Positions 31,651-32,319 of a DNA stretch of 34,452 bases are shown here, piece by piece. The position numbers were made by a program, and so were the translations under genes. The notes beneath the pieces are model-generated. The model searched no databases. It saw only the letters and a program-made list of their open reading frames with translations, and had not been told where the DNA came from. This DNA is from Parcubacteria group bacterium. GTDB lineage: Bacteria > Patescibacteriota > Minisyncoccia > Portnoybacterales > UBA2143. Where the stretch lies: the NCBI GenBank assembly GCA_002685955.1, contig NYYU01000032.1, positions 1 through 34,452 on the forward strand, in the 5' to 3' direction. The stretch's first letter is position 1, and the number at the start of each line of letters is the position of its first letter.

Positions 31651-32319
31651 ATGAGATTTGATATTATCAGCATATTTCCAAATATTTTTGATTCGTATTT
31701 TAATGAATCTATTATTAAGCGCGCTCAAAAAAGAAAGTTAATTAAAATTAATATTCATGATTTGCGCGATTATACTCAAGACCGCCATAAAACGGTCGAT
31801 GATAAGCCCTATGGCGGCGGTTTTGGCATGGTTTTAATGGTTAAGCCAATCCAAAAAGCAGTCCAGGCGATTAAGAAGCCCCGACGTAAAGTCGGGATCC
31901 CAACCCAAAAGGCGTCGGGAAAAAGAAAAGTTATTTTACTTTCAGCCAAGGGTAGAAAATTTGACCAGCGAATGGCGAAGAGATTCTCAAAACTAGATCA
32001 GTTAATTATTATTTCCGGTCGTTACGAAGGAGTTGATGAGCGAGTGGCTAAATATATTGCTGATCAAGAGATTTCCATTGGTGATTATGTTTTGACTGGG
32101 GGAGAAGTACCGGCCATGGTTATGGTTGATGCGGTTACTCGTTTAATCCCGGGAGTGATTACTAAAGGGTCGTTAGAGCAGGAGAGTTTTCCTCAGTATA
32201 CCCGGCCAGAGAGTATTAAGATTAATAACAAACAAAGAAAAGTACCTAGGGTTCTATTATCAGGCAATCATAAGAAGATTGAACAATGGCAGGAAAAGCA
32301 TGTTAAGATTTTTAAATAG
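31651..32319 (+). CDS. trmD: tRNA (guanine-N1)-methyltransferase TrmD with palindrome-encoded in-frame insertion
   Basis: MRFDIISIFPNIFDSYFNESIIKRA, DDKPYGGGFGMVLMVKP, ISGRYEGVDERVAKYIADQEISIGDYVLTGGE; insertion KKPRRKVGIPTQKASGK. Confidence 0.96.
   Translation: MRFDIISIFPNIFDSYFNESIIKRAQKRKLIKINIHDLRDYTQDRHKTVDDKPYGGGFGMVLMVKPIQKAVQAIKKPRRKVGIPTQKASGKRKVILLSAKGRKFDQRMAKRFSKLDQLIIISGRYEGVDERVAKYIADQEISIGDYVLTGGEVPAMVMVDAVTRLIPGVITKGSLEQESFPQYTRPESIKINNKQRKVPRVLLSGNHKKIEQWQEKHVKIFK
31879..31920. repeat. 42-nt composite palindromic element in-frame in trmD
   Basis: ccccgacgtaaagtcgggatcccaacccaaaaggcgtcggga; near-identical to 3626-3667. Confidence 0.93.

What the first reader, a model, noticed from the sequence alone, without database searches (positions are those of the whole stretch)
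31879..31920. Palindromic element inserted in-frame in the usually essential tRNA methyltransferase TrmD
...AIKKPRRKVGIPTQKASGKRKVILLS...: the element lies in the linker just before the strand corresponding to KVIYLSPQGR of typical TrmD. It adds about 10 residues relative to E. coli TrmD from memory. Length is 42 nt and the frame is preserved. The peptide matches the DedA tail at 12 of 14 positions or better, which homology of the host proteins cannot explain.
Basis: partly seen in the sequence, partly recalled or inferred. Interest (0 to 1): 0.88.

Follow-up and report, generated by a model that had tools for sequence, protein, structure and literature searches.

The report
Palindromic DNA inserted inside essential genes
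A short hairpin-forming DNA repeat has spread through the tiny genomes of a Parcubacteria lineage and landed, without breaking the reading frame, inside the tRNA-modifying enzyme TrmD and many other core genes, as "Rickettsia palindromic elements" are known to do in an unrelated group.

Summary
The 42-nt double hairpin at 31879-31920 adds exactly 14 codons (PRRKVGIPTQKASG) to trmD, in the linker before KVILLS. It belongs to a family with at least 13 places in this 0.92-Mb Parcubacteria genome. Ten are in frame, in NusA (twice), uS9, uS12, uL23, bL31, TatD, DedA, a DUF4012 protein and TrmD; one lies inside 23S rRNA. Relatives carry it in frame in RpoC, uS5, uL22, bS6, bL12, bL25, SSB, the CCA enzyme and NusA, and one inside RNase P RNA. 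A DNA-exact empty site exists for the 81-nt NusA copy. On a TrmD tree built without the linker, the element entered the same linker twice; another relative has an unrelated palindrome there. All three sense frames are used; copies in the frame where the loop would read TAA never have it. All 34 in-frame copies are sense. Stems show compensatory changes. Best explanation: a non-autonomous, RPE-like selfish palindromic element whose surviving insertions sit in linkers and tails. The mobilising enzyme is unknown; no Y1/RAYT transposase was found in the two richest genomes. New variant of a known kind; I found no earlier report in Patescibacteria.

The parts
31879..31920 (+). palindromic element, 42 nt, in frame in trmD (residues 77-90, PRRKVGIPTQKASG)
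   Evidence: sequence; two hairpins; model R1 78 bits, E 4e-19
31880..31896 (+). hairpin 1 of the element (31880-31885 with 31891-31896, loop GUAAA)
31898..31920 (+). hairpin 2 of the element (interrupted by mismatches in this copy)
31651..32319 (+). trmD, tRNA (guanosine-37-N1)-methyltransferase, host gene
   Evidence: ORF; Pfam tRNA_m1G_MT E 1.7e-53; PDB relatives
3626..3667 (+). second copy, 42 nt, in frame at the C-terminal tail of a VTT/DedA protein (SRRKVGIPTQKTSG)
3014..3679 (+). DedA/VTT-domain protein, host gene
14192..14272 (+). third copy, long form, 81 nt, in frame (another reading frame) in a DUF4012 protein (VPTQVRRSGTDSDQSIGGRDPDPKGIG)
   Evidence: the orthologue in relative G002 has a divergent copy at the same place
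13873..16338 (+). DUF4012 protein, host gene

Best explanation
The 42-nt segment is one copy of a non-autonomous, selfish palindromic repeat: two adjoining hairpins TCCCGAC..GTCGGGA/TCCCGAC..GTCGGGA, 42 nt in the short form and 81 nt in the long form. It copies itself into A-rich places of Parcubacteria genomes. Shown: copies sit in frame inside conserved genes, are open in the frame used, avoid the stop codon in the frame that would contain it, are all in the sense orientation, insert exactly (NusA), and entered the TrmD linker at least twice. Inferred: the DNA is translated as a short hydrophilic, disordered peptide that the host protein tolerates at linkers and tails; purifying selection keeps only in-frame, sense copies there; hairpin pairing is maintained because the hairpin is what is mobilised, by an enzyme supplied in trans that I did not identify. 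It works like the Rickettsia palindromic elements (RPEs) but is a separate sequence family in another phylum.
For: 13 distinct places in the own genome at E <= 6e-5; 10 in frame in genes, 1 in 23S rRNA, 2 intergenic. Hosts verified by Pfam: NusA, uS9, uL23, uS12, TatD, VTT/DedA, DUF4012, and in relatives RpoC, uS5, uL22, bS6, bL25, SSB, CCA enzyme. NusA site 1: AAG[81 nt]AAA here against an uninterrupted GKKKKYK of the same remaining length in G002. TrmD tree without the linker: two separate gains, and P0002's sister P0028 (support 95/89) lacks the element. Two NusA copies and the uL23 copy are 71-76 of 81 identical, pointing to recent copying. The frame that would read TAA in the loop never has it: 0/10 against 18/23 elsewhere, p 3e-5. 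All 34 in-frame copies are sense (31 of 31 gives p 9e-10). Stem covariation: 13 double-change cells against 6.0 shuffled, 0/500. Taxon-limited: the strict consensus gives 7 stretches in the GTDB species set, all Patescibacteria. The insert falls in a low-confidence (pLDDT < 50) stretch of the TrmD model, residues 79-88.
Against: No mobilising enzyme was found and no target-site duplication could be defined (Lys-codon flanks AAG/AAA hide short ones). No strain-level polymorphism was seen, so present mobility is inferred. Some same-place copies in different genera (uL23, DUF4012, bL31, NusA acidic linker) could be old, vertically inherited insertions. Stop avoidance and orientation are partly subject to ascertainment: a copy that broke an ORF would not be counted as coding, and the model was built from six sense copies. 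The TrmD linker is shorter than in relatives once the element is removed.
Confidence: 0.82

Rival explanations
1. Host-useful hairpin: the repeat is kept as an mRNA hairpin (attenuator, processing or stability element) in translation and transcription genes, and the peptide is a by-product.
For: Hosts are rich in ribosomal proteins, NusA and RpoC; stems covary; some intergenic copies in other genera look like terminators flanked by TTAG/CTAA.
Against: Orthologues in sister species lack it at the same site; also found in TatD, a glycosyltransferase, DedA and DUF4012; position within genes varies from N-tail to middle to C-tail; small genomes are naturally rich in translation genes; it also sits in 23S rRNA and RNase P RNA.
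Confidence: 0.08
2. RNA-level removal or ribosome bypassing: the element is not in the protein, like mitochondrial byp elements or an intervening sequence.
For: GC-rich hairpins of 42-81 nt in essential genes are of the size known for bypassing elements (from memory); a bypass would make the insert harmless.
Against: Every coding copy keeps the frame and has no stop; copies in the stop-prone frame lack TAA, 0/10 against 18/23. A bypassed or excised insert would need neither.
Confidence: 0.04
3. Conserved peptide module: the segment is a protein motif spread by selection for its amino-acid sequence, with the palindrome incidental.
For: KKPRRKVGIPTQKASGK is nearly identical in TrmD, DedA, uS9 and a relative's NusA.
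Against: The same DNA is read in three frames giving unrelated peptides (PRRKVGIPTQKASG, PDVKSGSR.., APTQGRDPDPEGVG), and lies in rRNA, RNase P RNA and intergenic DNA.
Confidence: 0.01
4. A REP element proper, mobilised by a RAYT/Y1 transposase.
For: Small hairpins, often as dimers; Y1_Tnp genes exist in 14 of 23 genomes of the order over the Pfam cut-off.
Against: The two genomes richest in copies have none over the cut-off: G000 only a stop-containing 31-position fragment, G001 nothing (genomes 84-88% complete). No GTAG tag; CGTC is inside the stem, not an unpaired tag.
Confidence: 0.05

Closest known systems
Rickettsia palindromic elements (RPE) and Wolbachia WPE
   Same: Palindromic repeats inserted in frame in unrelated, often core, genes of a reduced genome; encoded segment at tolerant sites; same-site insertions in orthologues and a possible-hotspot debate; non-autonomous (PMC10969869, PMC3767692).
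   Different: Much shorter here (42/81 nt against 100-150 bp); two tandem hairpins; another phylum; no direct sequence comparison was made; intergenic copies are few in this lineage.
CGTC-tagged REPs (include RPE-4 and RPE-6)
   Same: Short hairpins, intragenic copies encoding peptides, no associated transposase (PMC3733652).
   Different: No unpaired CGTC tag, no AT pairs at the stem base, no CCA-like tail, 7-bp stems, direct hairpin tandem.
GTAG REPs mobilised by RAYT transposases
   Same: Small palindromes, frequent dimers, non-autonomous (PMC3733652).
   Different: No GTAG; no RAYT/Y1 gene over cut-off in the element-rich genomes.
Enterobacterial RU/ERIC-type MITEs with intragenic copies
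   Same: Non-autonomous repeats that can add codons (abstracts of PMC2759123, PMC2229807).
   Different: Much longer (103-168 bp) and MITE-like.

Membership tests
RPE/WPE (protein-coding palindromic elements) | palindromic repeat, many copies per genome | tested here: met
   13 places in 919 kb; folding and covariation
RPE/WPE (protein-coding palindromic elements) | in-frame insertion in unrelated genes without destroying the ORF | tested here: met
   10 in-frame own-genome copies; empty sites
RPE/WPE (protein-coding palindromic elements) | length 100-150 bp | tested here: not met
   42 and 81 nt
RPE/WPE (protein-coding palindromic elements) | sequence membership of an RPE family, occurrence in Rickettsiales | tested here: not met
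   strict consensus hits only Patescibacteria in the GTDB species set; no direct comparison with RPE sequences was made
RPE/WPE (protein-coding palindromic elements) | inserted peptide at solvent-exposed sites | tested here: inconclusive
   insert in a low-confidence coil of a moderate TrmD model, pLDDT 66.7
CGTC-tagged REP | unpaired CGTC at one end, CCA-like tail, 8-9 bp stem starting with AT | tested here: not met
   CGTC lies inside the 7-bp stem (alignment) against definitions in PMC3733652
CGTC-tagged REP | intragenic copies, no dedicated transposase | tested here: met
GTAG REP / RAYT | GTAG tag and a RAYT (Y1) gene in the genome | tested here: not met
   no GTAG in the consensus; no Y1_Tnp over cut-off in G000 or G001
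MITE | terminal inverted repeats and target-site duplication | tested here: inconclusive
   ends are inverted (TCCCGACG/CGTCGGGA); duplication cannot be told within A-rich AAG/AAA flanks
MITE | cognate autonomous transposon | tested here: inconclusive
   only Y1_Tnp was searched for

The most novel reading that the evidence does not exclude
Parcubacteria carry several independent families of tiny, transposase-less, strand-biased in-frame palindromic elements that keep inserting at the same tolerant sites of essential genes (TrmD linker, NusA linkers, ribosomal tails). They would be a general source of disordered protein segments in streamlined genomes, with an insertion mechanism, possibly at single-stranded A-rich DNA, that is not yet described.
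Probability: 0.3. Interest if true: 0.82.

Novelty: new variant of a known kind. Interest (0 to 1): 0.64.

Why it matters
In-frame palindromic elements are best known from Rickettsia and Wolbachia, with fewer cases in some REP-rich genomes. Finding them in highly reduced Patescibacteria genomes, inside TrmD, NusA, RpoC, ribosomal proteins, 23S rRNA and RNase P RNA, shows that the phenomenon recurs in an unrelated group of small genomes. It gives a clean comparative system, with empty sites, repeated hits at one linker, three reading frames and a built-in stop codon, to test how selfish DNA survives in essential genes and whether it seeds new protein segments. It also matters for annotation: such inserts disturb alignments of the marker proteins used for CPR trees.

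Tried and rejected
Conserved linker or ordinary divergence: rejected by relatives and tree. Selected peptide: rejected by use of three frames and RNA-gene copies. Translational bypass or RNA excision: disfavoured by stop avoidance. RAYT mobilisation: no Y1 gene over cut-off in the richest genomes. CGTC-REP membership: motif definition not met. Phage carriage: no match of the strict consensus in viral contigs. A first TrmD model from 48 sequences was poor (pLDDT 55); a second was moderate (66.7) and its fold search finds TrmD with only TM 0.55-0.60, so it supports position in a loop but not fine detail. The uS12 host was first misread by eye as S6 and corrected. A palindrome of G002 type was sought in the own genome: only one degenerate place.

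Full report
WHAT IS THERE. Window 31879-31920 is CCCCGACGTAAAGTCGGGATCCCAACCCAAAAGGCGTCGGGA, exactly 14 codons of trmD (31651-32319, Pfam tRNA_m1G_MT E 1.7e-53). It folds as two adjoining hairpins (z -4.0 as RNA). Copies lie at 3626-3667 (C-terminal tail of a DedA/VTT protein, 38 of 42 bases identical) and, in an 81-nt long form, at 14192-14272 (DUF4012 protein, different reading frame).

A FAMILY, NOT A PAIR. A covariance model from six copies (R1) finds 13 distinct places in the own genome at E <= 6e-5. Reading each one: in frame in TrmD, DedA, DUF4012, uS9 (N-extension), uS12 (C-tail), bL31 (C-tail), uL23 (N-tail), NusA twice, and TatD; one within 23S rRNA, in a variable hairpin where Rfam expects about 5 bases and 57 are present; two intergenic (next to tRNA genes and before gyrB, the latter named by eye). 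In the family, 6 of 9 genomes have hits, again in frame: NusA, SSB, CCA enzyme, PheT C-terminus, a glycosyltransferase (G001); bL12, bS6, DUF4012 (G002); uL23, uL22, an ATPase (G003); a protein-isoaspartate methyltransferase-like protein, bL25, uS5, NusA (G005); NusA, RpoC, bL31 (G006) (Pfam for many, the rest by eye). One copy lies inside RNase P RNA of G017. Across the class 39 of 392 genomes have a match at E <= 1e-7. In G286 (12) and G344 (6) most copies are intergenic, so predominantly intragenic residence is a feature of this lineage. The strict consensus gives 7 stretches in the GTDB species set, all Patescibacteria, and none in IMG/VR.

INSERTION, NOT DIVERGENCE. TrmDs found in the other species of the family lack the segment. 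The cleanest case is NusA: G000 reads GGC AAA AAA AAG [81 nt] AAA TAT AAG and G002 reads GGG AAA AAG AAA AAG TAT AAA, so the remaining lengths agree exactly. For uS9, uL23, bL31, DUF4012 and TatD the copies lie in tails or linkers that vary among species. In TrmD, one further homologue of 120, P0002, has the peptide in the same linker. On a tree built without the linker, P0002 groups with element-free P0028 (95/89), away from this TrmD, so two separate gains are needed. G002's TrmD has an unrelated palindrome in the same linker (GTTTACCCCGCCCGGCGGGGCAAG), also present in its NusA, and similar peptides recur in other TrmD linkers (P0003, P0021, P0037, P0076, protein only). The linker is therefore a tolerant hotspot. 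Solved TrmDs are about 10 residues shorter there; in a moderate AlphaFold model the insert is a low-confidence stretch between a helix and a strand.

IT BEHAVES AS TRANSLATED SEQUENCE. The consensus is open in two sense frames; the third contains TAA in the first loop. Short-form copies read in that third frame lack TAA in all 10 cases (CAA in its place), whereas 18 of 23 other copies have TAA (p 3e-5; against coding copies in the other frames p 0.003). All 34 in-frame copies are in the sense orientation although the antisense strand is open in all frames; antisense peptides are hydrophobic (FPDAFWVGIPTLRRGF), so selection is a sufficient reason, but a strand-specific insertion mechanism is not excluded. 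Caveat: copies that broke ORFs would not be counted.

HAIRPINS ARE KEPT. Among 17 coding copies 90% of pair cells are standard pairs (at most 58% when slid), and 13 cells have changes on both sides against 6.0 expected on shuffling, 0/500, mainly C-G to U-A at the loop-side pairs. This is what one expects if hairpin structure matters for spreading, or if distinct subfamilies inserted.

MECHANISM. Best supported: a selfish, non-autonomous palindromic element. Recent copying is suggested by the two NusA copies and the uL23 copy (71-76 of 81 identical). The enzyme is not known: Y1_Tnp is absent over cut-off from G000 and G001. Flanks are AAG before and AAA after, so insertion at A-rich, Lys-coding DNA is favoured or best tolerated; any duplication is hidden there.

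KNOWN KINDS. It works like Rickettsia palindromic elements (in-frame, unrelated genes; PMC10969869, PMC3767692) but fails their length and taxon, and fails the CGTC-REP motif definition (PMC3733652). In the held open-access library I found no report of such elements in Patescibacteria; most subscription papers and preprints are not held, so priority is not established.

Noticed in passing
window 11299-12450: Glycosyltransferase ORF with an in-frame palindrome of another family (CCTGTCTGCCGGCAAGGCAGG, peptide CLPARQG); a related palindrome TCCCTGCCTGCCGGCAGGCAGGGA lies between tRNA genes at 21455-21478.
   Followed up: partly
window 31468-31495: Intergenic double hairpin CCGCCAGAGGCGGACCCGCCTCTGGCGG just upstream of trmD: similar two-hairpin plan, different sequence.
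   Followed up: no
window 32460-34081: 16S rRNA gene of 1622 nt (model 1533); two helices near its 5' end (h6 and h10 positions) both carry GTCGCCTTAGGCGAC, and a close relative lies at 31575-31599 before trmD.
   Followed up: partly
window 24090-24131: Strong intergenic double hairpin CGCCACGTCATCCGACGTGGCG / CCCCGTTGGCTAACGGGGCG after a tRNA gene.
   Followed up: no
L016 and L110 (relative G002): TrmD linker and NusA acidic linker both carry an in-frame palindrome TTTACCCCGCCNGGCGGGG, a second family at the same hotspots.
   Followed up: partly
P0015, P0068, P0069, P0078, P0108: TrmD linkers of other Parcubacteria hold repeat-like peptides (PERSRR, SFAKASAGK and others) that may be further inserted palindromes; only protein was seen.
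   Followed up: no
L037:1501-1547: The element sits inside 23S rRNA of the own genome (contig C24), in a variable hairpin.
   Followed up: partly
L061:1501-1560: The element sits inside RNase P RNA of order relative G017.
   Followed up: partly
L146-L151 (G344): Six near-identical intergenic copies flanked by AAGTAG/GTAGTAAG repeats, so in that genome the element is tied to a tandem-like context.
   Followed up: no
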